This document shows, piece by piece, positions 2,790 to 64,000 of a stretch of 64,000 bases of DNA. The translations under genes were made by a program, and so were the position numbers. This stretch comes from Axinella damicornis (lineage: Eukaryota; Porifera; Demospongiae; Axinellida; Axinellidae), in the NCBI GenBank assembly GCA_963931865.1, contig OZ007517.1, positions 6,957,707-7,021,706 on the forward strand, in the 5' to 3' direction. Each line of letters opens with the position of its first letter. Position 1 is the first letter of the stretch. A model generated the notes under the pieces. It did no database searches. It was not told where the DNA came from and saw only the letters and a list, made by a program, of their open reading frames with translations.

Positions 2790-3140
2790 AAAAGATTTTT
2801 TGTGGGTTTCATGTTGGCAACTTTATGGTGTGGTACTTTGTGATGCTTTTTCGAACACTTGGGAGTCTTCTTGGGCAGGAAAACACTCAAAGATGAATGG
2901 CAAGTTGTTAAACTCTTGACCGTTTTCGAGATTTTGAAAGAAATTTTTTTATGATAGATAAGGCACAAAATAGTGTCTGTGAAGTATGAAATGAACACAA
3001 CATATGTAACACAATATATGAACACAATTACACCAACACTGATCAATCAATCAATCCAGGTAGATAAAGGTTCATTGTGCTGTTGATCGGTTCATATGTG
3101 CATCATGAGGTATCGCTGGGTGCAAGGTTCTTGGTGATGC

Positions 3141-4557
3141 TCAGTGCTTGTGACCCCTTTTGATGTGCTTCTTGAGGTAGTTGGATGTGGTGAATATCTT
3201 GCCACAGATTTCACATTTATGGGGAATCTGTTGGTGAATCCTGAAATGCTCAGGAAGATACCTTTTGGGGAATGACCTCCCACACCACTGGCACATGTAT
3301 TTTTGGGGGCTGGTTTCGTAAAGCTCTGATGCCTTTATCCCTTTCGCAATTTCTGTCACGGTTCCAGCTTCAGTGGATGCAGCTATGCCCGGTACAGCAG
3401 TGTCTTCTGGTTTACACGAGTCATCACTTACTGATGGCTTCTCTCCTGTGTGTATCCTAAGATGACGTCTAAGAGTGCTACTTTTTCCAAAGCACTTGTG
3501 ACAGAACTCACACTGGAATGGCTTCTCTCCTGTGTGGACTCGTTGGTGTGATTGGCGATTTGCATACTGGGTGAACCTCTTGGGGCAGAACTCACACTGG
3601 AATGGCTTTTCACCTGTGTGTATCCTAAGGTGACATTTAAGATTGTAACTCTTTCCAAAGTGCTTGTGGCAGAACTTGCACTGGAATGGCTTCTCTTGTG
3701 TGTGGACACTGTGGTGTGATTTCAAATGGTCAAGTCGCTTGAAGCTCTTGGGGCAGAACTCACACTTGAATGGTTTTTCTCCAGTGTGTATCTTAAGGTG
3801 ATGGCAAAGAGTGCCACTTTGTCTAAAGCACTTGTAACAGAACTCACACTGGAATGGCTTCTCTCCTGTGTGGACTCGGTGGTGTGATTGGAGATGTTGA
3901 AAAAGGGTGAACCTCTTGGGGCAGAATTCACACAGGAATGGTTTTTCGCCTGTGTGTATCCTAAGATGACGTTTAAGATGGTAACTTTGTACAAAGCGCT
4001 TGTGGCAGAACTCACACTGGAATGGCTTCTCTCCTGTGTGGACACGTTCGTGTGGTTTCAAATGGTCAGGTCGCTTGAAGCTCTTGGGGCAGAACTCACA
4101 TTTGAATGGCTTCTCTCCTGTGTGGACTCTGTGGAGGGATTGCATACATCTTAGTTAGACTTCATACTGCTGATTGTGCAATAGGAAAGCCATGGCATAT
4201 GACAATTCGACCAGACTCTCTCCATGTGAGAGAACCTGGCCCTCGAGATTACCCCCCCCCCCCCCACTTCTAAACTCCAGGACACATCTAGTTACTCTAT
4301 GGTAGTGGTACTTACTTTGGTTTGGGTTCTGCTGTGTCACCTTCTGCTGGAAGTGCTCTCTTCCGTCTGTTGCTCTTTTCTAATCCACCAATCACTCGTA
4401 TGCCACTTGCACTCTCTTCTATACATGTAGGTTCGCTTGAACTGGAAATGGAAACCGCTCTTCGCCCACGCTCCTTGCCATTGGCCCGCTCCTTCATGCT
4501 CTTGCTGCATACTTGTTGGGGACCATCTGGAGTTTCATCAGTTCCACCGTGACCCAT
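3141..4557 (-). CDS. Poly-C2H2 zinc-finger protein, inverted-copy A (two exons)
   Basis: Predicted nuclear DNA-binding protein of about 409 aa. Exon 1 is 4557-4316 (start MGHGGTDETPDGPQQ, a Ser/Glu/Lys-rich region ending AEPKPK) and exon 2 is 4128-3141. The donor GTAAGT (from 4315) and the acceptor CCTCCACAG (to 4129) join in phase (2 nt + 1 nt), giving [13 protein letters not shown]. Eight canonical fingers (CxxC-x12-HxxxH) follow with TGEKPF linkers, then an acidic linker ([16 protein letters not shown]) and two C-terminal fingers starting [10 protein letters not shown] and HKCEICGKIF. Compared with copy B it lacks three C-terminal fingers between KASEL and YMCQW, which suggests an internal deletion. 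The splice model is inference. The finger motifs are read directly. No orthologue is recognised, and no KRAB or BTB domain is visible. Confidence 0.85.
4252..4265. repeat. Poly-C run (14) in the zinc-finger intron
   Basis: This homopolymer lies in the intron of zinc-finger copy A. The same intron position in copy B holds a 22-base run of the complementary base (21712-21733). The tract therefore predates the duplication and has changed length since. Confidence 0.9.
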
Positions 4558-4726
4558 GATGATGGCACTATCGGCTAGAGAAAGGAATGAAAAAAGTAGG
4601 ACAATGGTTAATTGTACATGCTAAAATAGGATTTCACATGCGCAACATTGATCGACTTCTGTGCATAATTATGGCATTCCAGCATTTAAATATGCACAGT
4701 CATATTTTGGGATGCAAAAATTTAGT

Positions 4727-9439: not shown

Positions 9440-10035
9440 CAATACAGCAGCAATACATGTAGTTATTAGCTTCGCTTGCTCAGCTACTTCCCCCTCGTTT
9501 GCCTACATGAGCAATCCGGCGCCAGACAGCTCTCTGTGCAGAGCTGCTGATCCCCGACTGCATCCGCTTCACTGACTGCTGCTCCCCGTTTACGTCCGCT
9601 TCATGTTAATTGCTCCCCGATTGCGTCCGCTTCAACTGCTGCTCCCTGTTTGTGTCTGCTTCAGCTGCTGCTCCCCGATTGCGTCCGCTTCAGCTGCTGT
9701 TTGCCACTTGCATCCGCTTCAATACTCAACTGCTCCCCGATTGTGTCCGCTTTGGTTGCTGCTCCCGGATCCCCGATTGTGTCCGCTTCGACTGCCCCTC
9801 AAGCGCTCCCCGATTTGCATGCATCAGGATCCGCTTGTAGCCCCAGCTGGATTCCAGCCCATGCCCGGGCCCATGCATTGCCAACGTCCTCAAACATTCT
9901 TGGCGGAGTTCGAGATTCAGTTAATTGAAGTACGAACGTCGCGCATCACTAGTCTAGTCCCGCCTCACGAACATCCCACTTTCGTCACGCACAGACAGGC
10001 ACACACACACACGTTAAAATCTTAATGTATTGATA
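9440..10035 (+). repeat. Interspersed repeat with an internal ~26-bp minisatellite (copy 1)
   Basis: Tandem variants of CCCCGATTGCGTCCGCTTCA plus GCTGCTG run from about 9545 to 9838. The flanks include a short GCTTCGCTTGCTCAGCTACT motif at the left and a CACACACACACGTTAAAATC end at the right. The reverse complement of much of the unit, including the ATTTTAACGTGTGTG end, occurs at 14560-14965. A truncated third copy is at 58040-58165. The open frames across it come from repeat periodicity and are not genes. Confidence 0.75.
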
Positions 10036-10239
10036 GCAAGGAGAACTCGAATACAGACACAGCACAGAATAGCTAGCTATATTCTGGTTGGAAGCACAAC
10101 ACTAAAGACAGTAGAGGTCACACCAAAACCACGGACATGTACCAGGCAGTGCTAGGCCTGAGATAATTATGCCAGAAGATTTTTCAGCATTTGCCAAAGA
10201 ATTGCCTAGAATAGCACAGACATGAATAGCTATGTCCCT

Positions 10240-14465: not shown

Positions 14466-14559
14466 AGCAGTTGTAATTAATATCTGTTGCTATAACTAGT
14501 GAAATGCGCGATATTGCGGGGCAAGCGTGAGCGAGTGCACATGCATGTGGAACAGTTCT

Positions 14560-14578
14560 ATCAATACATTAAGATTTT

Positions 14579-14644
<66 letters not shown>

Positions 14645-14990
14645 TGTGAGTGACAAAAGTGGGATGTTCGTGGGGTGGGACTTGACTATAGTGACGCACG
14701 ACCTTCGTACTTTAATTTATTTACTGAACCTCGAACTCCACGAAGAATGTTCGAGAATATTGGGCTGGAATCCAGCTGGGGCTGCAAGCGGATGCAATCG
14801 GGGAGCAGCGGTCGAAGCGGACGCAATCGGGGAGCAGCAGCCGAAGCGGACGTGATCGGGAGCATCAGCTGAAGCGGACGCAAGCGGCGAGCATGCAGCA
14901 GCAGCTGAAGCGAGCGCAATCGGGAGCAGAAGCTGGAAGCGGACACAAACGGGAAGCAGTTCAACAGTAACTTAAGTACTCACTGCATCT
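14560..14990 (-). repeat. Interspersed repeat with internal minisatellite, inverted copy 2, plus (GT)n
   Basis: The reverse complement of the repeat at 9440-10035: the TTAAGATTTTAACGTGTG edge, then (GT)31 at 14582-14643, the TCGAACTCCACGAAGAATG segment, and at 14765-14960 the tandem GGAGCAGC-GAAGCGGACG units. The (GT)n here replaces the short (CA)5 of copy 1, so it has expanded. Confidence 0.75.
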
Positions 14991-21387: not shown

Positions 21388-23079
21388 ATGGGTCACGGTG
21401 GAACTGGTGAAACTTCAGAAGGTCCCCAACAAGTACGCATGGAGGAGCGGGGCAAGAGTACCAACAGCAAGGAGCGGGCCAATGGCAAGGAGCGTGGGCG
21501 AAGAGCGGTTTCCAGTTCAAGCGAACCTACAGGTATAGAAGAGAGTGCAAATGACGTGATTGGTGGTTTCGAAAAGAGCAAAAAAAGGAAAAGAGGACAT
21601 CCTTTAATAGAAGGTGACACAGCAGAAGGTGACACAGCAGAAGGTGACACAGCAGAACCGAAACCAAAGTAAGTACCGCTACCATTGTGTGTGTCCTGGA
21701 TTTTAGATGTTGGGGGGGGGGGGGGGGGGGGGGTGTAGTCTCATGGGCCAGGTTCTCTCACATGTACATGGAGAGAGTCTGGTCAAATTGGCTTTCATGT
21801 TGCACAATCAGCAGTAGGAAATGTAACTAAGATGTTCACCCAGTATACAAATTTGCAATCCCTCCACAGAGTCCACACAGGGGAGAAGCCGTTCCAGTGT
21901 CAGTTCTGTCACAAGTGCTTTGGACGAAGTAGCAGTCTAAGACATCATCTTAGGATACACACAGGAGAGAAGCCATTCCAGTGTGAGCTCTGCCACAAGC
22001 GCTTCGGACACAGTGGCCATCTTAAACGTCACCTTATGTTACACACCGGAGAAAAACCATATGTGTGTGATTTCTGTCCCAGGAGGTTCACCCAATATGC
22101 AAATCTCCAATCACACCACAGAGCCCACACAGGGGAGAGGCCATTCAAGTGTGAGTTCTGCCCCAAGAGGTTCACCCAATATGCAGCTCGCCAATCACAC
22201 CAGAGTGTCCACACAGGGGAGAAGCCATTCCAGTGTGAGTTCTGTCACAAGTGCTTTGGACAAAGCAGAACTCTTAGATGTCACATCAGGATGCACACAG
22301 GAGAAAAACCATTCCTGTGTGAGTTCTGCCACAAGAGGTTCAGCCGCTATGATAATCTGCAATCACACCACAGAGTCCACACAGGGGAGAAGCCATTCCA
22401 GTGCAAGCTCTGCCACAAGCACTTTGGGCATAAATCCAGCTTACATAATCATTTGAAATCAAAGTCTCATGCATGGAATGTTCAAAGATCAGTAAGTGAT
22501 GACTCGTGTAAACCAGAAGACACTGCTGTACCGGACATAGCTGCATCCACTGAAGCTGGCACTGATGAAGATGAAACGATGTTACCAACAACCATGACAG
22601 AAATTGCGAAAGGGATAAAAGCATCAGAGCTTAACGAAACTCCAAAGTTGTCTGTGGCAGAGTATCAGTGTGAACATTGTTCTAAAGTTTGCAAATCGGC
22701 GGCTGATCTTACAAACCATCAAAGGTCCCACTTGGCTCACACATGCCAGTTCTGTGGTAAGGTCTTCTGTAACACCGATACCCTTCAAGATCATTTATCA
22801 GAGATCCACCAAGACCAAATAGGGAAGCTAACATTTAGTTGTAGACACTGTTTGAAGCGCTATCCTACTGACCTAGCTCTGCAAGGTCATGTGAAATCAT
22901 CTCATACCAGCTCCCCAAAATACATGTGCCAGTGGTGTGGAAGGTCATTCCCCAAAAAGTATCTTCCTGAGCATTTCAGGATTCACCAACAGATTCCCCA
23001 TAAATGTGAAATATGTGACAAGATATACACCACACTCAAATACCTCAAGAATCACGTCAGAAGGTGTCACAAGCACTGA
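21388..23079 (+). CDS. Poly-C2H2 zinc-finger protein, inverted-copy B (two exons)
   Basis: Predicted nuclear DNA-binding protein of 496 aa. Exon 1 is 21388-21668 ([15 protein letters not shown]; a basic/Ser-rich stretch; three tandem EGDTA units; AEPKPK) and exon 2 is 21870-23079. GTAAGT donor and CCTCCACAG acceptor join in phase. An upstream in-frame ATG at 21370 is less likely because copy A starts at the later one. Seven tandem fingers with TGEKPF linkers are followed by an acidic linker ([17 protein letters not shown]), then five fingers: [40 protein letters not shown] and [10 protein letters not shown]. Three of these are absent from copy A. The 5' side has a CATTCCTGTCTCTAG sequence that could be an acceptor for a non-coding exon. 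The gene converges on CEP72 downstream. Confidence 0.87.
21712..21733. repeat. Poly-G run (22) in the zinc-finger intron
   Basis: Same intron position as the 14-base run in copy A. The two differ by eight bases. Confidence 0.95.
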
Positions 23080-27300: not shown

Positions 27301-30300
27301 GTGGCACAGTGCATTGCATATTGTGTGGTGAATCCAAGAATTGATCACAGCATGTGCTACAGCAGTCAATAAACCTCTGGTTTGATCTCCATTAGGATTG
27401 AATGGTGATTTCAATTATGGCCTCTTTTGACCCTGTCTGATCTCCTCTGACTTCATAGTTCAGCTAATTATCAATTATGCTACCTTGACAGTTTTGATAA
27501 GAACACTGCACCCTTACATAAATGTTGCTTGGCAACAACACACTCTATAGGCTGTAGCTGGCAGTGTATATTCGCTTGACAGGACTATACTAGGCATGGG
27601 CGGATTATTCCGGAATAATAATAGGTAATGGGGAGATTCTGGGATAATGTGGGAATAATAGGTGTGGAAATCAATCAGTGTGCACGTGCACACCGCACCA
27701 CAGCTATTAGCTACAGCCCGCCGGCGCCTAGCCTAGCTAACCGCCACTACACTTTGCATGCTACAAGCTAGTTCCTGATGGCTGGTACCAGTAGTTCAGT
27801 AGACACGTACCCAGAGTCTGTCGAGTCTGATTGGGATGGCAGTGACTCCGGATCCTCTGAAGTGAGGTCACTGGTGAGCGTCCTTCGCTGCCTGAAATCA
27901 GCTGAGATATCAATTGGGGAAGAGGAAGGTGCGTGCAAACCCTCCTACAGGGAAGAAACTGAGCTGCAGTCAGAGTCTGTGACCCGAAGTCCATAACTCC
28001 AGCTCAGCGTATAAAGGAACATCCCAGTGAGCCGTCTCGAATGGCAAACTCTTTTGTGGCGCATGCCGCGAAGAACTAAGCTTGAAGGCTACCGTCGTAA
28101 AGAACCACTTGAAATCTGATAAGCACAAGGAGAGGAAGCGCAAACTAGAAGGCAAAGATGCACAAGAGCGTGACATCGTAACAGCTTTGCAAAAGCACAA
28201 TCAGACATCACACCTAGAGGGAGAAACCTTGCCAATTGAACAGCAGGTGTATCGAGTGAGCGTCCTTACTACTTTTCTTAAAGCTGGCGTACCCCCAATA
28301 AGCTGTCTTGTTTCAGGCATCTTCTGGAGAGGAATGGTCCTAGACTCACTGACAGAAGCCACCTGGCTAATCTGATCCCCTTTGTTCTGGATGAGCAAAG
28401 TCGACTTAAGCAGGAGATAGACCTGAAGTGTGTATCTGTCATCTTTGATGGGACGACACGCCTAGGCGAGATCCTGGTGGTTGTACTTTGCTTCATAGAC
28501 AGTGACTGGAACATACAGCAGCGCTTGGTTCAAGCCCAAACACTTGCTAAAAGCATGCAGGGGGAAGAGATCGCACATGAGTTGATGGACACCCTTTCTG
28601 TACGCTTAAGCATTTCATCCAACCGACTTCTAGCTGTCATGAGAGATCGGGCATCAGTGAATGGGGTTGCTCTACGTACCCTCAAGATCATCTACCCCAA
28701 CCTAGTAGATATCGGCTGCTTTTCCCACACAGTGAATTTGGCTGGTGAGCGCTTTAAAATTCCACTTCTAGGGGAGTTCACTTTTTTCCCATAGTGCTAA
28801 GGCTCGGTTGTGCTGGAGGGAACAATGTGGGAGGAGTATGCCTTCCTATTGCCAACCAGGTGGGGGATGTCATGAAGGCTGTCATGGAACTATATTTGGG
28901 GGTGTAGAGCCATTTGTCAGTACCCATGACGACTTTGCTCCAGTTACACGCCAGAAGCTTCTTGCCATTCTTACAGATCCTGCAAAGAATGCCTGTCTTA
29001 GGATAGAGCTTGCAGCTGTGGTGGATGCAGGTGAATGTCTTGTGAAGACCACCTGTATACAAGCTAGAGGGAGATGGCCCTCTGGCACTATATGCATATG
29101 AGTTCATGAACACTGTTCTGGCATCTATTCAGAGTGCACACTTCCCAAATATTAGTGCAGTTGCCAGACAATTGTGTCCGGGCAATGCTTTGGCTCAGCG
29201 GCAATGGGGTGAGTATGCTGTGGAGTGTGTGTGACCTGGTTTTGACTACATTGAACGCATGTACCAATACAATCGGTAACTGTGAGTCTGTGACAACTGT
29301 GTTTCTGTCTGCATGTGTTTGACTGCAAAACTGAATAATATATACTGAGAATAATTTGAGAATAATAGGAATAATATGGGAAGTTTTAGGGGAATCAAAT
29401 GAAAGAATATAGGCAGAAAAATCCACCCAAGCCTAGACTATACTACTGGACTGGACTACTGGACTCACCCAACACTGCTAAAATATGCCTTTTTCAGCCA
29501 TACTCAGTAGCTAAACATGCTTATCGATTTGCTTACTTAGCCTGTTGAAGCATTTTTCATGCCTTTCTTCGAGCTGGTCAAAGGTCACATGTATATTTAA
29601 TGAGCTTCAACAATGAGCTTCAGTGATAGTCATAGTAGATGACATAGGAATATTCTTTCTGGTTCCTATGCTTCAAATAAATGGCTGGGGTTTGGTTTCT
29701 TCACAAATAACTGCTCTTCTAAGCTTTTCATCTTCGTGACCTTTGACCTCTACGGAACCAGTGTATAACAGGCAAAGGGAGGAAGCTTAGGAACCTAATA
29801 AGCTGAATAGGTATGCTGTGCTACACTCCAGTCCAGTGAATAGACACTGCTGGCTTAGCTAGGGTATACGGCAGTACACTCTGTAGTGGTACCTTTCATC
29901 TGCCCATACACCATGGTACAAACAAGTTTGTACATGCCAAAAGAAGTGACACCAGAATCTGGATTCAGTTGCTCACTAACACTTGGCTACTCATCCTTAC
30001 AATGTCCATGTTGGCCTGCTCCAGTAGCTGCTGCACCTCCTCACTGGTCTTGCAGTTCTTCCTTGCGTCCTCCAGCTCCACTGTCTGTAGCTGTAGTTGC
30101 CTACCAAGCACTGCAGCCTCGGACTCCCGCTGCTTCACAGCTTCCTGAGGGGAAGGACCATCCAGAATAAACAGTGCTGTCATGGGAGCTTGCAACCTGT
30201 ATATTCCTACAGTTTGCAGCTTGCATTATGAAGACGTTGCAAAGTGGTGAAACACTGCTCTCAAGTTTGGTGCATAGTGCATTGACTAGCAGTGATGCCT

Positions 30301-33300
30301 AGTTATTTTTTTGCTGCTTGCATCCAATTCCGTATTTTGATCACAACATGAGGGACAGCTAGTGATAGAGGACTTTGTAGATCAAGGGCACTGTCAACGG
30401 AACGCAGTTAGTGACATACTTGAACAACAGTACTAGCCTCGTTCCCAGGCCGCGTGGGAGGAGAGAAGACGCGGCCTGGGAACGAGGCCACAACAGTACC
30501 TACGCATTGTACAGCGCGATTATGGGTTGAAAATTGAATTGTTGGTGAGTCATGAAACAACCCACTATATGGTACATTATCTATAGATGACACTAAGTGC
30601 ACCATACTCAGAGGAATATGCTGACCATATGTACATCACAATTTGTTGTGCTTCGTTCTCTCAGCAGCAGACAAGTGTGAAGGCCACACTTTAATTTGCT
30701 GTCTTCTCAATTTGGTCAATTCCTACTTCTTGTCACTTCACTTCATCAATTCCCACTTTGTCAATTTCTCACTTTGTCAATTCCCACTTCGTCAACATTG
30801 ACGAAGTGGGAATTCTAGTGTGCCAGGTGTGCATACATGATTGATTGCACACATGCATACATGACACCATGCATCCACATGCAAATGCAGCTAACACAAG
30901 AGAAGCTGCAGTGGTTGGCAGAGCTGGTTGCAGAATGGGCAAGCAAAAGCACAGCAGAAAGAGAGAGAACTGGACTCTCTCATTGGCCAGTTACGCTATA
31001 TATGCTAGCTCACAAAACCAGGAAGTTTCTGTGCAGAGTGATTGAGTTATCAACATCAGAGAGGCAGCCATCCAGCAACTCTACTACATTTTTTTCAGAT
31101 AATTATGGTGACAATAAGCTTTGAGGACATAATTATGTGATCCTCTCATCACCCATTCCCCCAACAACATGAGATTATTTTAGAGTGCGTTAATTGCTGA
31201 TCATAATGTTACTGTTCATTCAATAGGACTTACACAAGCAAAGTTCTGAACAAGATTCAATCATACGCAGCTCCAAATGCATAGGACTTCCTGTTTGGCA
31301 TGCTACAGAACCAGGAGCGCATGAGCCGCTGAAGGCGGCGAAGGAGCGTCGAATTCAGCATGCCCGTCCTAGCGAAGTAGTAGGTATTCACGGGTCCCAA
31401 ACTTTTATGTTGTACGGCAAGAGGCCATTGAGTTGTCAACATCACGAGGCAGCCATCCAGCAACTGTACTAATTATGGTGACAATCAGCTTCGAGGACAT
31501 AACTATGTGATCCTCTCATCACCCCATTACGTCAAACATGAGATTATTAGACCATCAGAGAGTACGTTAATTGCTGATCACAATGTTACTTTTCATTCAA
31601 TTGGACTTACACAAGCAAAGTTGTGAATATGATCCATACAGAAGTTTATAATTCAATCATATGCAGCTCCAAATGCATAGGACACCCGGTTCGATCGCCA
31701 TGCTACAGAACCAGGAGCGCATGAGCCGCTGAAGGCGGCGAAGGAGTGTCGAATTCAGCATGCCAGCCCTAGCGGAAGTAGTAGGTATTCACGTGTCCCA
31801 AACTTTCATCTTATACGGCAAGAGGCATAGGCGTAGAAAGCGGGGGGGGGGGGGGGGGGGGGGGGGGGGCTAAAGCCCCCCCAAGTATGCAAAAAGGCCC
31901 CCCCAAAAGTCTCTTCAGCTATTATAACAAGTGAGTCTTTAAAAGACTTGATGCGTCTCGGCATGACTTGGTATCAGCTAAAATCATGCAGAGGACATGG
32001 CAGCTGTTTAATCCTTTATGACTGCAAAACCTGTTAGCTATGAGACTCAGCTGAAGTCAGCATCAGTATCCTTGGAGGTTCTGTGTGAGCAAGGGGTGGG
32101 TCAGGGTGAGGTGGGAATGTTCACCCAAAGGGTGAAAGCAGTAAGGTCGTGTCTGGGCTTGATGTTTAGTCAGAGCCAGTTGGGCCATTTTAATTCATAA
32201 ATGGACCTAGAGAACACCTTGGCCAATTCTTCCAGCAATTATCTAGCTAGTTAGCTAGAGCTGAGTAGTATGCACTTGAGTGCAGCACACTGTGTATGGA
32301 TGAGTGAGTATTCATTGTCCTGATTTACATAGCCACAGTCTTGGTGAGTGGATTCATGAGCAGCCAAGCAAAACCCATAATCACTTTTAAGATCTACTTA
32401 GCGTATAAAGCAGCACTTGCGCGGGCGCATTGCGAAAAGCGACGTACGTACCACGTACCACGTACCACGTACCTACGCATCCAGCACTGTGTCTCGGCAC
32501 TTCGGTGCCGAGACAAAAATATATAGTAGTCTTAGTACTTGAGCAAACATGCGTTTCTCAACTCAAAGTTGCCGCTCGTTGACAGCGACGAGCCCGATCA
32601 TGACTGAACAGCTGCAGGGCTCTAATAAGATCTAGGCTGTATAATTGAAATTCCTACATCTATTTACAGCACACCTTCAAGCACTAGTCTCGGCCCCAGA
32701 CCCAAACCGACCCCAGCACCGATCGCATCTAGTACCGTAGATTTCAGGTTGGTTGTCCAAAAAATTCGGAATGCAAAACTGCAAAAGTATCACGTGACTT
32801 GAGTCCACTAATAGAATCCAAGTTGTCATGTTTGGACAACCAACCTGAAATCTACGGTATCACGCGCGTGATACTAGGGGTCGGTTTGGGTCTGGGGCCG
32901 AGACTATTCGAGCACATGGTCAGTCGGGGGCAGTTACATCATGAAGCGTTTAGAGTCCTACTTCGTAGCCGGCAGCCAGCCAAAAAAGCATAAACTAGGT
33001 GGAGCATCCAGCAGTCGTGACTTGAGTCATGACAGCGATGATGGCCGCGTGAGTGAGACTGCAGACTGTGACAGTGAGTCTGACGCTGATGCTAAGTATC
33101 TATGGATGTATATTATAAATACAGCTAACTGTAAATTATACGAAATTATAGCTACTTGCTAGCGAGTGTGTTTAGTTTGCATTGCCGTAATCTGGTATCT
33201 CTTTCATTGGCTGGCAGTGAGAATGATGTACTCGGATGTGAAGCTGAATGTTGTGTCACTCAACACAATGAACCTTACCAACCCAGGAGAACCTTCAATG

Positions 33301-35423
33301 AAAGTACGTAAGAAGAAACAGGGTAAACAAAGTCGCACCTTTCAGAAAAGCTGGTTTGACCATCATAGGTGGCTGACATATTGTACTACCCGCAATAGGG
33401 TATTCTGCTTTTACTGTCACAAAGTGAAGTTGCAAGGGGGTCTCACGTTCAGAGAACATGAAAAGAGTCAGTGTCATAGGGAGGCATGCATGAAATATGA
33501 AGCATCAAACAAACCTTCGGTTGTTGTTTTGGCGGATAGGGCATTAAACAAAGAGCAAGACACAAGAAGAACCATGCTACTCAAACAACTCTCTTCACTA
33601 AGATTTCTGATGCGTCAAGGTTTGGCTGTTTGAGGGCATTCTGATATAGAAGGAAATCTTCACCAAATAATGAGATGCAGGGCTGAAGACATTCCTAAGT
33701 TTCATCAGTGGTTAGAAGCAGGCAAATACCAATCTCCTGAAATCGTGAATGAGCAAATTCAACTACCGCTGAATTTTTAGAAGATATACGGTAATGGCCC
33801 ACTGTGTACTACGCTCTGTTTTAGATGATATTCGATCGCAGACTTACTATTCCCTAATAGTCGACGAAACAAGGGATGTTAGTGGAAAAGAACAGCTAGC
33901 AATTTCTCTTAGATGGGTAAACAGTTCTTATGAAATTTTTGAGGACTTGATTGGTCTAGTCGAAGTGGAAAGGACTGATGCTTCATCACTGAAGTCTGTA
34001 ATCAAAAGATATCCTTATCCGTTGCAACATTCCATTCGGCAGTTGTCGCGACCAAGCATATGATGGGGCGGCAAATATGGCAGGACATTTGAATGGGGTA
34101 GCTGCACAGATCCAGAGAGAGGAACCAAAGGCTCTGTTTGTACACTGCTTGGCTCATTCCATAAATCTTTGTCTCCAAGAATGTGGGCGAAAATCACTAC
34201 CGGTATGAGATGCCCTTGCTCTGGTAAATGAGTTGCACAACCTTGTCCACTTGTCACCTAAACGTTTCGCCCTTTTTAATCATCTTGTTTTTGTTGCCAC
34301 AGAGCAGCTTGCTACCACATAAACGCACAAGTGGGCATTGGTGCAGGAAATGCTGCCAAACGTTTTCTGCAGAGGCAGAGGAACACAGATAGCTTCTTTC
34401 AATCTGTTGTCATTGAGTCTCGGGACTTAACAGAGGAACCAAAATTGCCACGCCAAAGGCGAGTGCCAAGACGCATTGATCATGTGTAACATTGAACTGC
34501 AGAAAGCCATCATCATCAGAGTCCGGAAGAATATTTTAGGCAGCAGTATTTTGAAGTCATAGATATTCTGATAACTGAAATGGAACACAGATTTGACCAA
34601 CAGAGTTTAGAATTGCTGGGTGAGATGGAAAGAATTCTCATTAATGCTTGTAATGGTAGCATATCACAGCCATCTGGTAGACTGCAAGAACTGTATCGAT
34701 CTGACATTGAGTTCCAACGTTTAGAAGCGCAACTAAAAGTGCTGCCTGATTTGGTGCATACTGTTAATCAACAGAGCAAAACCCAAGGCCAAGTGGCCAT
34801 CAAAGAGGTTACAACCATGTCCACAATTTGTGATCTGATGAATACCTCTTCCTTTGGGAAATCCATGTTCAGTGAAGTTCATCGGCTTCTCCTTCTCTAC
34901 CTCACGGTGCCTATGACCTCAGCTACAGCAGAGCGTACATTTTCTGCTTTAAGAAGACTAAAAAACTACCTACGTGCAAACATGACGCAAAAGCGTCTTA
35001 ATCATGTCATCATGTTGAGTTGTTACACACTTTAGAAAATAGCGCAGGACATGCACAATAACCCGAACTTTAAACTCATGTAACGTAAATTCAATGTTTG
35101 CGGTGTATGGGTAGTTTATGAGGAGAGGGTAACATATGGAATGGAGTTGCCATGATCCCCGTAATCGCCAACCAACAGGGGGTGTTCCAATTAACAGTCT
35201 GTGTTCGAAATATTAGACTGACTACAGTGACTACGGTATACAAATATGTTTGTTGTTACCTGGAGGCGCACAATATCTGCATCCTTTTGCTGCTCGATGG
35301 AATGCACTTGATGCTGAAGGGCTTCCACCTCACTCTCAAGTCTCTGCCACTCCCCTCGTTCATGGGGAGGAGGATGGTGGGGTCCAGTGTACTGGGATGT
35401 CTGTAGCCACTTGACGAGTTTGC
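24351..35423 (-). CDS. CEP72: CEP72 coiled-coil block (exons 11-15)
   Basis: Exon 11 gives EWQRLESEVEALQHQVHSIE then QQKDADIVRLQ. Exon 12 gives EAVKQRESEAAVLGRQLQLQ then TVELEDARK and LLEQANMDI. Exon 13 gives STLRQLVRTLQEENASLKAA. Exon 14 gives LQGENQSLRAELREVIEQHQ. Exon 15 gives ATNDHLLQELEDTKERHAQE and ends DFMKHV-stop. Heptad-like hydrophobic spacing runs throughout. This is the family's conserved C-terminal coiled coil, used in vertebrates for satellite interactions. Introns of 0.7-5 kb here house two hAT elements and a gypsy remnant. Confidence 0.92.
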
Positions 35424-38400
35424 CTGTAATGAAATGCAGTAGCTATTAATCTCCTTGGTGCTATGTTTTGCTTGCTGACAATATTATTTTCAGTTAATAT
35501 CAGTCCAGTCTTGGAACCTGGGAATTTGATTTGGATTCTTGCTCCATTACATAGATCAGTTCAACAACTTCGCTGGCATGGTGAACGCTTGCCTTATCTA
35601 TGACCACAATTGATTCTCAGATAGAGAGCAAATCATGTTCAGTGAAATTCTAATGGGAATTTTTTTCCTGAAATCCAGTCCAAAAGGAGTGGTTTAAAGA
35701 AGCAGCTGTTAAGGCAGGGAAGCTCTCCCATGACTGGATTTGCGTTATTCTCCATTCTACAGTGAAATGCTTACCGCATGACAAGCCCATAACCTTAAGG
35801 TTACGGGTTACAGTTTGCTATTGCGCATGCGCAGTGTGCGTTTGCGGTTTACAGTCAACAGTGGAATGTGTGCACGACTTTGGCGTCAATTTTTTTATCG
35901 CTGAAGTAACATCTAACCGTATATTAGAATGGATTTCAATTCTACGAAGAAAGGGGCAGGGCAGCTCAAAAAGTTTCACCGAGATAAACATCTTGTTCGT
36001 GAGATAATGTGTGTTCTACTTGCCTGATCGGGTGAAAAGCGAATGAACAACCATCACTCGTTTTTCTGACGGCAGCAAAGCGAACCGGCTTCAAACCGCC
36101 CTCCAGTCGGTTGAAAACTTCCCCATGGATGCTGCCAAGCTGGCCTGTTAGCCCTTTCTGATCGCAAAAGCTGATGCCAAAGTTTGGGAACTCAACCTTG
36201 AAATTTGATGCCACTGCCCATGTTGGCATGATGTACTCAGGCGCTAAGATCATACCAGCTAGAAGGTACTCATATTGCTGTAATACGTTGTTTTTGTTGC
36301 ATGTCTCTAGCTAGTTCCTGCGCGGAGGGACAAAGGTACTAATTTGTACGTTATGTAAATGAATGAGCACATGGTATCCCGTGACCTTAACCGCTCCCTG
36401 TTTTCCTTCTTTCTGGCTTGGGTTTTCTTTTATGGTGACTTGAGTACAAAAAACTGAGTAAAAGTTTCTGAAAGTGTACTCTTTGCTGGGAGCAGTGTAG
36501 ATACAACTGTATCCTCAATACAACGAATACAATGTGCTGGAATCACAGAAAGTCATCTCCCCCTGATTGAGAGGGTACAATATCCAGTGCACTATAGCAA
36601 ACGTAAAATGCCCTTAGCAAAATCTTAATATGGAGTTGTTGATGCTGGCACTATCAACTTGTTTCTGAGCCAAAGCAGTGGTCAATCTAAGCGGCTACTA
36701 CATTGCTTTCTGGACTGCAAGTGATGAAATTTGCTGCAATCTCGGGTAGTCAGAATTAACGTTTAGGGTGTGGCTTCCTGTTTTGTTTTGCTGTTCGTTT
36801 AGTTTTTTGTATTGTGTATAGTGGCCGAAACGTGTGTTTCAAACTACTTGAACATTAATTTGGTTCAGTTGGGGCGCAAGCTAATATACCGGGCACCGTG
36901 GGAATTCCAAGAATGTGAGGCCCTGCGTGTCCAAGGCGGTCTTGCATATCAAGCCCTGCACTGTCTGTGGCTGTTCTTCACGATAAGTCATTCAAAGCAC
37001 AAGCATAATCATAGATTTGCAACCTAATCACTACACCAGTACTCTTAATTGTAATTGTGAATGTTCAAAGGTCCTAACTGCTCACTACAATCCGACCCCA
37101 TCAGAAACCGTGCAGTGCTTTAAATTCCATAGCAGGTTCCGTAAACAGGGAGAATCCGTCGCTACCTTTGTTGCGGAACTTCGTTCGTTGGCCAAATTTT
37201 AAGGACACACTGGAGGATATGCTCCGTTTGTGGAATAAACAATGGAGCTATCCAGAAGAGGTTGCTGGCGGAGTCGACGTTAACGTACCAGAAAGCACTG
37301 GAACTCGCCCAGGGGCTAGAAGCCGCAGCAAAGAACTTGCGAGAGCTGCAGGCGCCAGGTACGAAAAAGGAGGAAGAGTCCCCAATTGCCAGTAACACTC
37401 AAGAGGTACACAAGGTGGTTCCCTCAGGGAAAGGGAAGTCAAATTCCACCTGTAATCACTGTGGTACGTAGGTCAGGTCATGATGCTACCAAGTGCCGCT
37501 TTAAAGAAGCTGTGTGCCACCAGTGTCGCAAGCGAGGACACCTAAAGAGAGTGTGTCGAAGCGAGCAGAAGGGAGAGCAAGGGAATACACGCTCACCTTG
37601 ACCAGTCCGCCTGGTTGAGGAAGAAGATGACGACGATATATAGGAGCTTCCCTTGTTTCATTTGGACTCGCCAGGCCAGACACTACCCGTCTGCATCCGC
37701 GTCCTTGTCCGTGTCCGCGTCCGCGTCCGACCGTATCCGCCTTTTCCACTTGCCCTTTAAAGTGGGCTGGCCCAAGCTTGTTTGGCAGAAACTGGTTTCA
37801 ACAGGTCAGACTTGACTGGCGCGAGATCTTGAAAGGATTCAAAGCAAAAATCCTAGTTGAGGAAGAAGACTCAGTGAGCTTGTGTTCACACTGCCAGATC
37901 AACCAGTCAGCACCTCCGTCTGCACCTCTCCACCATTGGAGTTGGTCCACGAGGCCATGGGTGAGTGGATTTCGCAGGACCGTTTCTGGGAAAGATGTAC
38001 GTACCTAGTACTCATTGATTCTCACTCTAAGTGGTCCAAATTGTGCAAAGGTGGTTCTCAGGTGTTCCATCACTACAGGAAGTGGGAAATGCTAATACTG
38101 GAAACAGTGGACAACGGGCCGTGTTTTGTTAGTGCAGATTTTGAGTCATTTCTGGTGGCTAATGGGATCAAACACATAACGTCCGCTCCATACCACCCGG
38201 CCTCCAACGGCCTCGCCGAATGTACAGTGCAAATCCTAAAGAGAGGACTCAAGAAAGTGACTGAAGGATCACTGAGCACTCGCACGGCAAAAGTTCTTCT
38301 CACTTACCGGATAACCCCTCAAAGCACCACTGGAGCCTCACCAGCCGAGCTTCTCCTTGGTAGACAGCCTCGAACAAGGCTAGACCTCCTCAGACCAAAG

Positions 38401-41400
38401 TTGGAAGAGAGAGTCCATAACAAGCAATGGCAGCAGAAAGCTACACACGATAGCACTGCCAGAACTAGGGAATTTGGCAAAGGGGAGGCGGTGTATGTGA
38501 AAAAAACAACAACTTTGGAACTGGACAAATGTGGTTGGAAGGCAAGATTGCTGAGTGTACTGGCCCTGTGTCATTTCTGGTGGAAATGGAGGATGGCAAA
38601 CTGGTCAGACGCCATCAAGATCAACTGAGACACCGGAAGGTGATTACAGGTTCTCGACAAGAACATGACTTACCTGTCGAAGATTGGGATATTTCCACGA
38701 GGGCTGAAGAACAGCCACCTGAGCCAACTGAACTGACCCCAACCGAAAGTCCGTCAGTGGTAGAGCCAGTCACCGCGACATCCGACAGTTGTGAACATAT
38801 GCAATCTTCTGAGCTGATCATACCCAGTCATCGATACCCTCAGAAGATTCGGCATCCTCCGGAATGATACACTTAACTTCTACGAGATACTGGTTGGTGC
38901 ATTGTGTATGTGTGTATTGGTGCATGAGGTTTTGCTTTTTATAAGGGGAAGGGTGGTATCGTTATTGTATTGACATTTCCTATAGCACTTGTGAGTATTC
39001 TGTTTTTGTCTTGTACAGATTGTAACAGATTAGTCTATCATGAAATGATTCTCCCATGAACTTGCTGTTCATGCGCTGTGACCAAGACACCACAGAAAGC
39101 CCTTAGCTAATTAGTCCTCTAGCCTATCCTGGTAACAGGTCAGTCTGTACAGCTCTCTCTGAGTCACACATGCTCTGATCGGCTAGCTTCTGCTACAGAC
39201 TGGGTATGAACCTCAGCTACAACTTCCGAATCAATATGTTTGGCATGATTTCCTGTTCGGTTTGTTTTGCCACTTCAATTTTTCATTTGTTTCTTCAGCT
39301 CGGTGTCACATCAATGTGATAACAATCTGATCCCATTTCATCAATAAATACATTACCCTTTGATAGCACTACCCTCGTTCCCAGGCCTCCACGCCTAGCT
39401 TTTGTCGCTTACAGTATCCAAGCCACAACAGCTGGGCACAGAGGCCTGGGAACGAGGCTAGGCAAGCACTTTAAACATTACATGGCTAACCCAGCCTCAT
39501 CAGGACGTTAACTGTCTCCCTCCCGTCTCGTACATACTGCATGAATTAGGTTACACACTTACATTTGAGTGAGTGGTCCGTCTTGAGGGCCCCCATATCA
39601 GCTGAGGTGTGCCTGCATGGTTGAAATGTGTAGATCGGAAAGCTCTAGTGAAATACCCTCTCCTCCAGCGCCAAACCAAATAACACACATACGTATGACT
39701 GTGTGCTACATACCCTCAGGACTACTACTACTAACTCAATCCTTCCCTCCGGTTGGTATTGATTGCTGAACAGGAAGCTAGGCAAGTACTCTGCATGTGG
39801 GTGCAGCTTAGCCTCGTACCCAGTCCCACACCCAGCTTTTCGTCGCTTGCAGTACGGTACTGCAAGCGACGAAAAGCTGGGTGTGGGACTGGGAACGAGG
39901 CTAGGTGCAGCTTGCAGTCATTTTTAAATATCACATGTACGTAGTAGAGTTCACATGAGCCACGGAAGAAGTGGAGAACAGAGCATGAACGATACGATCG
40001 CCCTGCAGAGAGCTGACCGTGAACAGGGGGCTGTGCATGTGCGCAGTGACAAGTAGTGGTATCGAGAAAATGAAGGATAAAGTTGATTTGGCATGTGGTA
40101 CTATGTTAAGTGATTGATGGCTACCTAAGCCAGGTCATATGCTCCTGCTACCAACAAAGGTCAGCCCACACAGATATTCATTTTATGTGGTTCCTGTGAT
40201 GCAATATGCATTCAACCATGTAGGTATGCACTACTACATATCAGTATCATCACACCTGGACCTCAAGAGATATGGGGACAGAGGCTAGTATACTGACCCT
40301 TGAAGGATCTCCAAAAGCTGTTCAACAGCACTGCGAGGGTGCAACTCTCTGATTGCCTTTTGATGTGATGTATCAGTAGCAGAGTGCCCCTGAACAGACA
40401 GAGGGGCAGAAGTAAAGTTTCCCTTCACAGAGTAGTCACCCAGATCAAACTCTTGACTGTCACTTGGGGTTCCATTTGGCTCTTGATGTTTACTGCTAGT
40501 GTGGCACTGAGAGGAGGTGTGGTGGTCCTGTTCGGAGGGTGATGTGTGGAGGTAGACAGAAGAGCTCTGTCCTCCTAGAATGCCTGGTCTGGTGTGGGGG
40601 TGTTTGGCCAGTGTGAGCACTGAGTCACTCCTTGCTATGAGCTCAAGCAGTTCATCTGTGTCGTCTTCAAGGGCTACACAAAATAAACAAAATGTCAACA
40701 GTCGTAATGGTGGGGAAATTTTCGTATGCACGTGGTATTCGCAGGTGAAGTAAGACGGTGACACTCTAAATGTTCAACACCAGACAAAGTGTGCGTGTAT
40801 GAGCAGGTACGACAGTGCTAGTTGCAGTTGTAAAGATGGTTCTTTGAGGAATGGAAGTCATCCAGTTCCAGAGGGTGCTCTGACTTCCATTGTTCCGTCA
40901 AAGTCAAGCTATTGAACACCATGATCGACTGCTGTCTTTTTACACAGTTACAACTGTCCCATACATCGTCATAAATATGGTAGCCAAACGCAAATACAAT
41001 CAATTCACCAACTCTTCCTCCATCACTTGTCACATGTGCCACTAACTATTACCCTGAGCGGAACGTTTAGCGGTGACACACACGTATCAGCAAAATATCC
41101 CCAAAGAAATATTGTGAAGTCACTAGACTCAACTACTACGGTATCAAGTCAATATGCACTACAACCCATTACCCAATACACATCTGTACAGAGGTAATAT
41201 TGGACAGAATAAACTCCAGGTGGGTGAACGTACTTCCCCCCTGGTCCGTACCTGTAGGCCTGGCAGCCAGAGAATGAACCAACTCAGTTCGAGATGTGAT
41301 GCTAACAAAAAACAAGAGACAATAGTAATTGTCGTCTGGATATGCCAGCTACGTAGTTCAAGATTGCACGACTATGCCACTACATGCTTGAGTTGAACCT

Positions 41401-60278: not shown

Positions 60279-60775
60279 ACTCTCTACGTGCACAGTGCAT
60301 GCAGTGCACCACCTCCAGCTAGCTCCCCAAACAAGTAAATCAGCTACCTTGCTTACCACATGTAGTATACGTAAGTCCCCCTTCTATTCCACCGAAGATG
60401 TAGACCCTACTAACAGGTACTAGACCCCCTCCTTATGACGTCATGTATGCTTAGTCTTGCTGATTCAGCACAAGATGGTGGAAACCTCGAGTTCAAAGGC
60501 ACTAGAATGTTATTCAGATGCCATTGTGAGTCCAGACAGATAGATTAACTTTATGGCTCTGTGGCCAAGGTCGCGGGCTAGTCTTCGCGGCGCCTATGCG
60601 CAGGCCGGCGCGCACTAAATAGAATGCCAGACTGGAGCATCCCGCAGTAGTTATCTAAGCTTAATCTGATTGGCCAAAGTAGCTTGCACATGATATTTTA
60701 TCTAAAGTTAATTTCATTGGTTGGATCACGTGACAATTATTTTGTAATTTCGTTCAAAACTGCAACCCACGCAAA

Positions 60776-61935
60776 CTCTGCAAACAGTGCAAACAGCGCA
60801 AACTGCAAACAGTGCAAACTCTGCAAACAGTGCAAACAGCGCAAACTCTGCAAACAGTGCAAACAGCGCAAACTCTGCAAACAGTGCACTCTGCAAACAG
60901 TGCAAACTCTGCAAACAGCGCAAACAGTGCAAACTCTGCAAACAGTGCAAACAGCGCAAACTGCAAACAGTGCAAACTCTGCAAACAGCGCAAACTCTGC
61001 AAACTCTGCAAACAGCGCAAACTCTGCAAACAGTGCAAACAGTGCAAACTCTGCAAACAGTGCAAACAGCGCAAACTCTGCAAACAGTGCAAACAGCGCA
61101 AACTCTGCAAACAGCGCAAACTCTGCAAACAGTGCAAACTCTGCAAACAGCGCAAACAGTGCAAACTCTGCAAACAGTGCAAACAGCGCAAACTGCAAAC
61201 AGTGCAAACTCTGCAAACAGCGCAAACTCTGCAAACTCTGCAAACAGCGCAAACTCTGCAAACAGTGCAAACTCTGCAAACAGTGCAAACAGCGCAAACT
61301 GCAAACAGTGCAAACTCGGCAAACAGCGCAAACAGTGCAAACTCTGCAAACTCTGCAAACAGCGCAAACTCTGCAAACAGTGCAAACAGTACAAACTCTG
61401 CAAACAGTGCAAACAGCGCAAACAGCGCAAACAGTGCACTCTGCAAACTCTGCAAACAGCGCAAACTCTGCAAACAGTGCAAACAGTGCAAACTCTGCAA
61501 ACAGTGCAAACAGCGCAAACTCTGCAAACAGTGCAAACAGCGCAAACAGTGCAAACAGTGCAAACAGCGCAAACAGCGCAAACAGCGCAAACAGTGCAAA
61601 CAGCGCAAACTCTGCAAACAGTGCAAACAGTGCAAACTCTGCAAACAGTGCAAACTCTGCAAACAGCGCAAACTCTGCAAACAGCGCAAACAGTGCAAAC
61701 TGCAAACAGTGCAAACAGTGCAAACAGTGCAAACAGCCCAAACTCTGCAAACAGCGCAAACAGTGCAAACTCTGCAAACCCAGCAAACAGCGCAAACTCT
61801 GCAAACAGTGCAAACTCTGCAAACAGTGCAAACAGCGCAAACTCTGCAAACAGCGCAAACAGTGCAAACTGCAAACAGTGCAAACAGTGCAAACAGCGCA
61901 AACTCTGCAAACAGCGCAAACAGTGCAAACAGTGC
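60776..61935. repeat. 9-bp minisatellite, left arm (about 1160 bp)
   Basis: Three monomer types alternate in irregular higher-order order. Occasional 7-bp CTGCAAA units shift the phase. Because no monomer creates a stop codon, long open frames exist on both strands in most phases; they are not genes. Confidence 0.95.
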
Positions 61936-62475
61936 TGTTTGGAGAGTTTGCAGAGTTTGCACTGTTTGCGCTGTTTGCACTGTTTGCAGAGTTTGGACTG
62001 TTTGCGCTGTTTGCAGAGTTTGCACTGTTTGCAGAGTTTGCACTGTTTGCGCTGTTTGCAGAGTTTGCACTGTTTGCACTGTTTGCGCTGTTTGCAGAGT
62101 TTGCACTGTTTGCAGAGTTTGCACTGTTTGCGCTGTTTGCAGAGTTTGCACTGTTTGCACTGTTTGCAGAGTTTGCACTGTTTGCAGAGTTTGCGCTGTT
62201 TGCAGAGTTTGCGCTGTTTGCACTGTTTGCAGAGTTTGGACTGTTTGCGCTGTTTGCAGAGTTTGCACTGTTTGCAGAGTTTGCACTGTTTGCGCTGTTT
62301 GCAGAGTTTGCACTGTTTGCACTGTTTGCGCTGTTTGCAGAGTTTGCACTGTTTGCAGAGTTTGCACTGTTTGCGCTGTTTGCAGAGTTTGCACTGTTTG
62401 CACTGTTTGCGCTGTTTGCAGAGTTTGCACTGTTTGCAGAGTTTGCACTGTTTGCAGAGTTTGCGGTGTTTGTGT
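61936..62475. repeat. 9-bp minisatellite, right arm, inverted (about 540 bp)
   Basis: Units TTTGCAGAG, TTTGCACTG and TTTGCGCTG. Less than half as long as the left arm, so the palindrome is lopsided. Confidence 0.95.
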
Positions 62476-62553
62476 TCGGTTTATATTACGCCTAGATTAC
62501 GTCATAAAAAAAGTGACCAATCAGATTCATCTTAGATAAGTACTGCGGTACTG

Positions 62554-64000
62554 TTGAAGGCTCTACAAAATTGCAGGTGGTCGTACAAACTGATGCGTAT
62601 ACCACCCATCTCGGCTGAATGTAGCACAACCGCAGACCAATACGCTGGATTTGTAAGCTTATTCATTATGGTAGAAGACCTCCACTGGAGATTTGCCTGC
62701 ATCTATGCAAAGACTACGGCCCTCAAGTACTTACAGAAACAGTCACTCAATTTGGTGGAGGTCTCTACTTTAGAGAAGCTGATTAGAAAACTTAGATGCT
62801 GATAACACCCATGTCAGCACAACAGAGCAGAACAAGTGGCCACTATGCCGAGATTGTAAGATTTGTTACAGTAGTAGAAGACCTCCACTGGCGATAGGCT
62901 TGCACCTATGCAACAACTAGGCCCTCAAGCACTGGAAGAAACAGTCAATCAATTGCTGGAAGTCTCTACAAAATTGTAGGAAGTTGTACAAACAGATGCT
63001 TATACTAATCAACTCAGATGAATGAAGCAGAACTACTGACCTATATATATGCCGGGTTTGTAAGCTTTGTCGCAGCAGTAGAAGACCTCCACTGGCGATA
63101 GACTTGTATCTACGCAATGACTAGGCCCTCTAGCACTGGAAGAAATAGTCAATCAATTGCATGGTGGAAGTACCTACTAAACTGTAGGAAGTTGTACAAA
63201 CAGATGCGTATACCACTCAACAACTTCCTACACTTTTGTAGAGGCTTCCACCAATAGATTGACTGCTTCGCCGAGTGTTTGAGGGCTTGGTCGTGGCATA
63301 GATGCAAGCCTATCGCTGGTGGAGGTCTTCTACTACTGTAACAAAGCTCACAAACATGGCATGAGGTCAGTAATTCTCCTTCATTCAGCTGAGTTGAGTG
63401 GTATAAGCATCTGTTTGTACAACTTCCTACGGGTGTCCACCAATTGATTGACTGCTTCTTCCAGTGCTTGAGTGCCTACTCGTTGCATAAATGCAAGTGT
63501 ATCGCCGGTGGAGGTCTTCTGCTACTGTGACAAAGCTCATATACATGGCATAAGGTCAGCCTCATTCAGCTGAGTTGAGTGGTATAAGCATCTGTTTGTA
63601 CAACTTCCTACACTTTAGTTGAGACTTCCACCGATAGATTGACTTCTTCGTGGAGGGTTTGAGGGCCTAGTCGTGTCTTAGATGCAAGCCTATCGCCAGT
63701 GGTGGTCTTCTACTACTGTGACAAAGCTCACAAACCCGGCACATAGGTCAGTAGTTCTGCTTCATTCATCTGAGTTGATTGATATAAGCATCTGTTTGTA
63801 CAACTTCCTACAATTTTGTAGGTACTTCCACCAATTGATTGACTGTTTCTTCCAGTGCCTGAGGGCCTAGTTGTTGCATAGGTGCAAGCCTATCGCCAGT
63901 GGAGGTCTTCTACTTCTGTGACAAAGCTCACGAACCGGGTATAAATGTCAGTAGCTCTGCTACATTCAGCTGAGTTGAGCGGTACAAACATCTGTTTGTA
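62554..64000. repeat. Second inverted satellite array, ~200-bp monomers, truncated by window end
   Basis: Units marked by GTAGGAAGTTGTACAAACAG and GTAGAAGACCTCCACTGG run in one orientation at about 62570, 62790, 62976 and 63183. From about 63219 the complement runs (CAACTTCCTAC at 63221, 63420, 63601 and 63801), each with TTGATTGACTG and GCAAGCCTATCGCC. Monomer spacing is 180-207 bp. The array continues past the window. Short open frames recur inside the monomers and I do not treat them as genes. Confidence 0.9.

What the first reader, a model, noticed from the sequence alone, without database searches (positions are those of the whole stretch)
60642..62548. Foldback-like transposon built from a 9-bp minisatellite
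A 1.16-kb array of CTCTGCAAA/CAGTGCAAA/CAGCGCAAA flips orientation at one point and continues as 0.54 kb of its complement, all enclosed by ~35-bp terminal inverted repeats. That architecture recalls Drosophila FB elements but with a 9-bp monomer of three alternating types. The order of the three types may carry a record of unequal exchange.
Basis: partly seen in the sequence, partly recalled or inferred. Interest (0 to 1): 0.88.

Follow-up and report, generated by a model that had tools for sequence, protein, structure and literature searches.

The report
Foldback transposon in satellite-carrying composite
The mirrored 9-letter repeat is one of a dozen copies of a jumping-DNA family that seems unable to move by itself, and this copy is one edge of a 13-kb mobile block that carried repetitive satellite DNA into its present site, very probably in a single jump.

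Summary
Window 60776-61929 is a 9-bp minisatellite (CTCTGCAAA/CAGTGCAAA/CAGCGCAAA) that flips and runs as its complement to 62468, between 35-bp inverted repeats. The same genome holds 12 copies, arms opposed in all 12; the 197 genome matches of a 45-bp array probe are accounted for by them. Target duplications are 8 bp, perfect in 4 of 10 copies tested. The outermost 8 bp differ between ends: CAACAGTA and GATCCATC. The closest published plan I found is Tm1 (nematode Mutator/Foldback), but its duplications are mostly 9 bp, and I found no transposase between these ends. New points: the same ends also carry another inverted array around a KDZ-transposase fragment; and the window copy is the left edge of a 13.4-kb composite holding ~200-bp satellite. 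The composite's two flanks, joined, match all 40 scored places (118 candidates) across the junction, so it moved as one piece. Of four other composite-like places, two show 7/8 and 8/8 duplications, one none, one cannot be tested. Arm order is inherited side by side between related copies. New variant of a known kind.

The parts
60635..60640 (+). GAGCAT, what remains of the left 8-bp target duplication of the composite (right copy GAGCATGG, outside the window)
   Evidence: a 9-bp deletion between two CAT repeats would explain the missing GGGATCCAT (inference)
60638..60772 (+). G-end module (positions 5-139 of the family G-end)
   Evidence: 99% identical; 9 other copies carry 125 bp or more of it
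60642..60676 (+). inverted repeat, left member
   Evidence: 35 bp, 88.6%
60776..61929 (+). G-arm: 128 parsed units of about 9 bp (types A CTCTGCAAA, B CAGTGCAAA, C CAGCGCAAA, with variants), CAAA sense reading inward
61930..61946 (.). turning point; the core found in seven other copies is missing and the arms meet at a near-perfect palindrome (CCAAACAGCACTGTTTG, C-end-left orientation)
61947..62468 (-). C-arm: 58 parsed units in the opposite orientation, with a 27-unit (about 243-bp) internal duplication
62463..62556 (-). C-end module, terminus CAACAGTA at 62556
   Evidence: 99% identical over 93 bp; 11 full-length matches in the genome, this one included
62514..62548 (-). inverted repeat, right member
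62557..64000 (.). ~200-bp tandem repeat (satellite cargo), orientation switch near 63220; continues beyond the window inside the composite
60638..64000 (.). part inside the window of the 13.4-kb composite, which ends at G000:C13:7031757 (74051 in window numbering) with a second foldback module and its own C-end

Best explanation
It is a foldback-type DNA transposon, apparently non-autonomous. Two short terminal modules (about 62-93 bp C-end and 107-139 bp G-end, with different outermost 8-bp motifs) are recognised in trans by an unidentified transposase that makes 8-bp target duplications. Between them lie two arms of a 9-bp minisatellite, each reading the same way inward from its own end, so that the whole folds back; the arms lengthen and shorten independently by slippage or unequal exchange. 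The window copy lost its core when the arms were joined at a palindrome (inferred: hairpin-tip deletion). It does not stand alone: it forms one edge of a 13.4-kb composite in which its G-end was paired with the C-end of a second foldback module (GCTATT-type arms around a KDZ-transposase fragment), so that ~200-bp satellite DNA between them was carried along in one transposition. Shown: family, ends, target duplications, insertion of the composite as a unit. Inferred: trans mobilisation, arms as extra transposase-binding sites, the way the core was lost.
For: 24 exact end 18-mers in the genome. 12 copies with opposed arms; the genome counts of the array 45-mer (94 + 103) equal those found inside the 12. 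TSDs 8/8 in L012, L014, L016, L021, 7/8 in L017, 6/8 in L020, of 10 tested. Dead-G-end junction identical in the 4 copies compared; interiors of composites mostly colinear. Composite TSDs: L022/L023 7/8, L020/L027 8/8, window/L024 GAGCAT. Joined flanks of the window composite match 40 of 40 scored places (118 candidates) across the junction at 83-86%. Arm inheritance between related copies.
Against: No transposase between intact C and G ends was found. A single-unit TSD is absent in L011, L022 and the window, and L009 has only an offset repeat. Composite L010/L011 shows no matching TSD; in L018/L039 both outer ends are truncated. The AAAGAAGC duplication of L020/L027 was found by eye next to a GATCCATC remnant, not in the usual place. 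One block of the L027 interior is reversed. The word shared by array unit and terminus (AACAGT) is no more than chance (694 of 2000 shuffles as long), so the binding-site idea has no sequence support here. Reads were not available.
Confidence: 0.82

Rival explanations
1. The family belongs to the Mutator/Phantom foldbacks (like Tm1): a MULE transposase acts on the asymmetric ends.
For: Tm1 has asymmetric 7-bp motifs outside the inverted repeat, a tandem-repeat domain of varying copy number and several interior types (passages of PMC3169594), the same plan as here.
Against: TSD is exactly 8 bp in the 4 perfect cases; Tm1 is mostly 9 (8-10). No MULE gene was sought.
Confidence: 0.35
2. A KDZ (Zisupton-type) transposase mobilises the family; the L017-type interior is the remnant of its autonomous form.
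For: Six copies (one with a truncated C-end) hold a 75-aa piece at 95-100% identity, related to long ORFs with Pfam KDZ and CxC5 matches; 8-bp TSDs are reported for Zisupton (passage of PMC12730594) and seen here.
Against: The two loci with longer KDZ pieces of this lineage, K3 and K5, have a different 5' border (AAGGTGCAGTATTGG) and match L017 only inward of the C-end module; searches list no C or G end there. Capture of a KDZ piece explains this better.
Confidence: 0.2
3. Another 8-bp-TSD superfamily (hAT, or P as in Galileo) supplies the transposase.
For: TSD length (that P makes 8 bp is recalled); Galileo shows that a P transposase can drive foldbacks (PMC3573991 passages); hAT remains lie in this window.
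Against: The ends do not fit the hAT terminal pattern that I recall; nothing links the window hAT to these ends.
Confidence: 0.3
4. Assembly artefact or a simple minisatellite with a local inversion, not a transposon.
For: Long inverted arrays are hard to assemble; reads not seen.
Against: 12 of 12 dispersed copies have opposed arms, 10 of them with more sequence between the arms than the window copy and L021; TSDs and empty sites.
Confidence: 0.03
5. Segmental duplication, not transposition, spread the copies that adjoin the 200-bp repeat.
For: L011 and L022 share 992 bp of C-side flank at 99%; the 200-bp repeat also lies in blocks on C2, C6 and C8; composite L010/L011 has no TSD.
Against: For three composites the outer transposon ends carry matching or partly matching TSDs, and one has empty sites.
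Confidence: 0.08

Closest known systems
Tm1 (Mutator/Foldback family of Meloidogyne, PMC3169594; passages read)
   Same: Asymmetric short motifs outside the inverted repeat, a tandem-repeat domain (about 14-bp unit) varying in number, several interior types, mostly non-autonomous
   Different: Here 8-bp TSD, 9-bp unit of three types, arms up to 1.8 kb, no transposase found, composite with satellite cargo
Tetris / DAIBAM (Drosophila virilis, PMC4079207; passages read)
   Same: Modular foldback sharing terminal parts with another element; internal tandem repeats; link to satellite DNA; TSD 8-9 bp in the three complete copies
   Different: Tetris repeats are about 220 bp and themselves seed satellites; here the arm unit is 9 bp, found (at the stringency) only in the elements, and the 200-bp satellite is cargo beside the arms
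Galileo (P superfamily, PMC3573991; passages read)
   Same: Long TIRs with tandem repeats that change independently at the two ends; chimeric copies without matching TSDs
   Different: 7-bp TSD, P transposase, repeats about 210 bp
Ising TE: large segments between foldback elements in Drosophila (one passage in PMC6431247)
   Same: Foldback copies mobilise the DNA between them
   Different: Hundreds of kb; here about 13-21 kb with satellite, and one inner end is dead
Cg_HINE Helentrons of oyster (PMC7492417; abstract and outline read)
   Same: Terminal modules combined with different tandem arrays
   Different: Helentron elements with central repeats; here target duplications and inverted arms
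Sea urchin TU foldbacks (recalled; one search listed no paper devoted to them)
   Same: Recalled: inverted arms of a short tandem unit, 8-bp TSD
   Different: Not compared at sequence level

Membership tests
Foldback-type (structural class) | Long inverted arms built of short tandem repeats | tested here: met
   12 of 12 copies
Foldback-type (structural class) | Dispersed copies with target duplications | tested here: met
   8/8 in 4, 7/8 in 1, 6/8 in 1, offset in 1, none in 3, of 10 tested as single units
Tm1 / Phantom (Mutator) | Asymmetric terminal motifs outside the inverted repeat | tested here: met
   CAACAGTA and GATCCATC
Tm1 / Phantom (Mutator) | 9-bp target duplication | tested here: not met
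   exactly 8 bp in the four perfect cases
Tm1 / Phantom (Mutator) | MULE transposase in an autonomous copy | not tested
KDZ / Zisupton | 8-bp target duplication | tested here: met
   length from a passage of PMC12730594
KDZ / Zisupton | KDZ transposase bounded by these ends | tested here: inconclusive
   Only a fragment, inside six copies; K3/K5 have a different border
Composite transposon | Outer ends of two copies bound one insertion with one target duplication | tested here: met
   window: 40 of 40 scored empty sites; two more with 7/8 and 8/8 TSD; one without a match, one not testable
FB of Drosophila | Sequence homology of ends or the NOF gene | not tested
   No FB sequence was fetched

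The most novel reading that the evidence does not exclude
A terminal-module system in which one pair of asymmetric ends repeatedly acquires different minisatellites as inverted arms (9-bp, GCTATT type; sister ends adjoin a 21-bp array and an 18-bp array akin to the 9-mer), because paired arrays are functional subterminal binding sites; and pairs of such elements act as composite vehicles that move satellite DNA between chromosomes.
Probability: 0.3. Interest if true: 0.75.

Novelty: new variant of a known kind. Interest (0 to 1): 0.56.

Why it matters
How satellite DNA reaches new chromosomal sites is an old question. Here one insertion, with related empty sites in the same genome, shows a foldback pair carrying several kb of ~200-bp satellite in what looks like one jump. 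The three-letter unit code gives a readable history of array growth in each arm, so slippage, unequal exchange and arm-to-arm conversion could be told apart copy by copy.

Tried and rejected
Autonomous copy: L013, with 6.2 kb of extra DNA within its G-arm, looks like a 9-mer element interrupted by a DIRS/Ngaro-type retrotransposon (RT-like and tyrosine-recombinase-like ORFs judged by eye; not scanned against Pfam). L026 looked like a third array type; it is a C-end followed by about 3.6 kb of inserted DNA with its own inverted ends and an ORF that looks IS630/Tc1-like to me (by eye). KDZ as the family's own transposase: set back by the different border of K3/K5. Long-ORF KDZ copies A, B, C (L046, L047, L059 and neighbours) are a related lineage (about 50% identical over the C-terminal piece); A and B have a 34-bp minisatellite, and no C/G-like end was found in the stretches held. 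Arm-to-arm homogenisation within an element: not seen (window z 0.6; highest of 12 is z 1.9 in L012, 1 of 60 shuffles as good). Terminus-like word in the arrays: not beyond chance (9-mer 694, L054 unit 170 of 2000 shuffles). Rfam: no match in the window at gathering scores. Viral contigs: no match to the end pattern. In one search the window C-flank was taken from the wrong C-end (that of L024), and those window rows were dropped; one search replaced them, showing only rows of 90% identity or more and at most 14 per locus. The first join was empty on the left and was not used; the join was typed by hand. One search prints '/60' for the G-arm comparisons too, but 30 shuffles were run there.

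Full report
WHAT IS THERE. The finding's array is real. Units CTCTGCAAA (A), CAGTGCAAA (B) and CAGCGCAAA (C) run in CAAA sense from 60776 to 61929 and in the opposite sense from 61947 to 62468. Read inward from each end, the arms hold 128 and 58 parsed units, variant and short ones included. A 35-bp inverted repeat (88.6%) lies at 60642-60676 and 62514-62548. A single DNA strand of 61600-62500 folds at -431 kcal/mol, against -210 on average for 20 shuffles.

A FAMILY. The end 18-mer has 24 exact and 6 one-mismatch places in the unnamed 226-Mb genome; with 2 mismatches there are 130 in all, against 6 for the reversed pattern. Twelve copies carry the 9-bp arms: L009, L011-L016, L018, L020-L022 and the window; L019 and L026 hold only remnants. 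A 45-mer array probe (up to 3 mismatches) has 94 forward and 103 reverse matches in the genome (100 listed); the same numbers are found inside the twelve, so all 197 are accounted for. The arms face each other in 12 of 12. Seven of the twelve have about 417-526 bp between the arms; L009 has 214, L021 36 and the window 17; L022 and L013 are interrupted. The window turning point is the palindrome CCAAACAGCACTGTTTG. Compared with L011, L014 and L018, inner parts of both arms seem to be gone, so a deletion at a hairpin tip is the likely cause (inference).

ENDS AND TARGET DUPLICATIONS. Aligning copies shows that the element goes 8 bp beyond the inverted repeat, with different motifs: CAACAGTA at the C-end and GATCCATC at the G-end. 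Of ten copies with both ends tested as single units, the 8-mers next to the ends match 8/8 in four (L012, L014, L016, L021), 7/8 in L017 and 6/8 in L020. They do not match in L011, L022 and the window; in L009 a shared CGTATTA is offset by four bases. C-end modules differ little: median ungapped identity 98% over 62 bp among 15; the minimum, 77% (L009 against L016), goes with an indel visible.

SAME ENDS, OTHER INTERIORS. L017 (2317 bp, TSD 7/8) has the same 62-bp C-end and 107-bp G-end, but its arms are inverted GCTATT-type repeats and its core holds a 75-aa KDZ piece. Six places hold the full piece at 95-100%: L017 and the five 'dead G-end' modules below. Two other loci, K5 on C5 (63 aa, 95%) and K3 on C3 (53 aa, 85%), hold longer stretches of the gene. 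They are colinear with L017 but start at another border, AAGGTGCAGTATTGG, and have few (K3) to many (K5) GCTATT units. I read this as capture of a deleted KDZ element by the C/G ends, with array growth from resident seeds (inference). More distant relatives in the genome have open frames up to 651 aa; the 589 aa of one in L046 match Pfam KDZ (E 1.7e-7) and CxC5 (E 7e-9). The K5 pieces themselves gave no KDZ match in Pfam. Sister ends (CAACAGTACCGCAGCTC) adjoin a 21-bp array (L052, L053) and an 18-bp array in L054 whose commonest units CAGTGACAA, CTCTGTCAA and CAGCGTCAA resemble the window's (14 of 18 positions for the two-unit period that I chose; 6 of 20000 shuffles as good). No opposite arm of these was seen in the 2 kb held.

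THE COMPOSITE. Five L017-like modules lack the outer 50 bp of the G-end. The junction to a ~200-bp repeat is identical in the four compared, and each of the five lies on the same contig as a 9-bp copy, some 9 to 40 kb away. The order in the window is: G-end, 9-bp arms, C-end, ~200-bp repeats, dead G-end, GCTATT/KDZ module, C-end. Among rows of 90% identity or more, interiors of the window copy and L010, L023, L027 align at about 91-97%, mostly in the same order. Exceptions: one block of L027 is reversed, and 1.4 kb of the window copy is missing from L010 and L023. Outer target duplications: L022 with L023, 7/8; L020 with L027, AAAGAAGC 8/8, seen by eye behind a GATCCATC remnant, the 9-bp module being in the opposite orientation there; window with L024, GAGCAT on the left and GAGCATGG on the right. 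The window G-end seems to have lost 9 bp between two CAT repeats (inference). L010/L011 gives no match, and L018/L039 has lost both outer ends. The decisive test: I joined the window's left flank, GAGCATGG and the flank beyond the far C-end (144 bp). All 40 places scored, out of 118 candidates, match across the junction (query 4-142 or more) at 83-86%. So a dispersed repeat was the target, and the 13,414-bp block (60638 to 74051 in window numbering) came in as a unit, with at least the 1.4-kb difference possibly later.

UNIT ORDER. Written as letters, the window C-arm aligns with those of L011, L018 and L020 better than all 60 Markov shuffles (z 2.4-2.7), and the G-arm with L011, L013, L014 and L018 better than all 30 (z 2.3-6.0). 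Borderline: C-arm with L013 (1 of 60) and L022 (2 of 60), G-arm with L009 (1 of 30). The remaining comparisons are at or near chance: C-arm with L009, L012, L014, L015, L016, L021; G-arm with L012, L015, L016, L020, L021, L022. C-arm against G-arm of one element is not convincing in any of 12 (best L012, 1 of 60). The window C-arm repeats itself at 27 units (71% of positions). All this is. So the order records side-by-side descent among some copies and local duplication, not exchange between the arms.

HOW IT PROBABLY WORKS. Shown: mobility, target duplications, one composite insertion. Inferred: an unidentified transposase acting in trans on the terminal modules; because the inner G-end of the composite is dead, the outer G-end can pair with either C-end, giving a 1.9-kb or a 13.4-kb unit. 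Extra transposase-binding sites in repeated TIRs are reported for Galileo (passage of PMC3573991) and are my guess for the arms; a shared word between unit and terminus is at chance level.

KNOWN KINDS. Tm1 (PMC3169594, passages) has the same plan, but mostly 9-bp duplications and a MULE gene. Tetris (PMC4079207, passages), Galileo and the Ising TE (PMC6431247, passage) show the separate features. In the listings of my searches (titles and starts of abstracts, lists capped) I saw no paper on a foldback composite carrying satellite with empty-site proof, nor on a foldback with KDZ content; most subscription papers are outside that library. Verdict: new variant of a known kind.

Noticed in passing
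window 9542-9770 and 14786-14959: A 29-bp minisatellite occurs twice in opposite orientation about 5 kb apart, with more inverted sequence inside (9829-10036 against 14558-14793): another foldback-like element; a like 29-bp minisatellite lies in L052 and L053.
   Followed up: partly
window 34496-35035 (and perhaps 28282-33633): Remains of a hAT transposase (Pfam Dimer_Tnp_hAT, E 4e-7, in 34496-35032); the ORFs at 28282 and 33163 gave no significant match but may belong to it.
   Followed up: no
window 37861-38628: Integrase-core-like ORF (rve, E 4.4e-6, bits below the Pfam cut-off).
   Followed up: no
window 3141-4154 (-) and 21739-23079 (+): Two long C2H2 zinc-finger-like ORFs with TGEKP linkers (by eye).
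   Followed up: no
Interiors unknown.
   Followed up: partly
L063 around C5:6401494-6401620: A ~130-bp palindromic element sharing the KDZ border sits directly before the K5 border (by eye).
   Followed up: no
K5 (L050): A DUF3987 ORF (361 aa, E 5.7e-20) lies beside the KDZ gene on the other strand; K3 has similar, broken ORFs, not scanned.
   Followed up: no
stretches A and B around L046 and L047: Two long-ORF KDZ copies are followed by a 34-bp minisatellite of more than 1 kb.
   Followed up: no
L026 about 1052-4704: A family C-end is interrupted by about 3.6 kb of inserted DNA with its own inverted ends (by eye).
   Followed up: no
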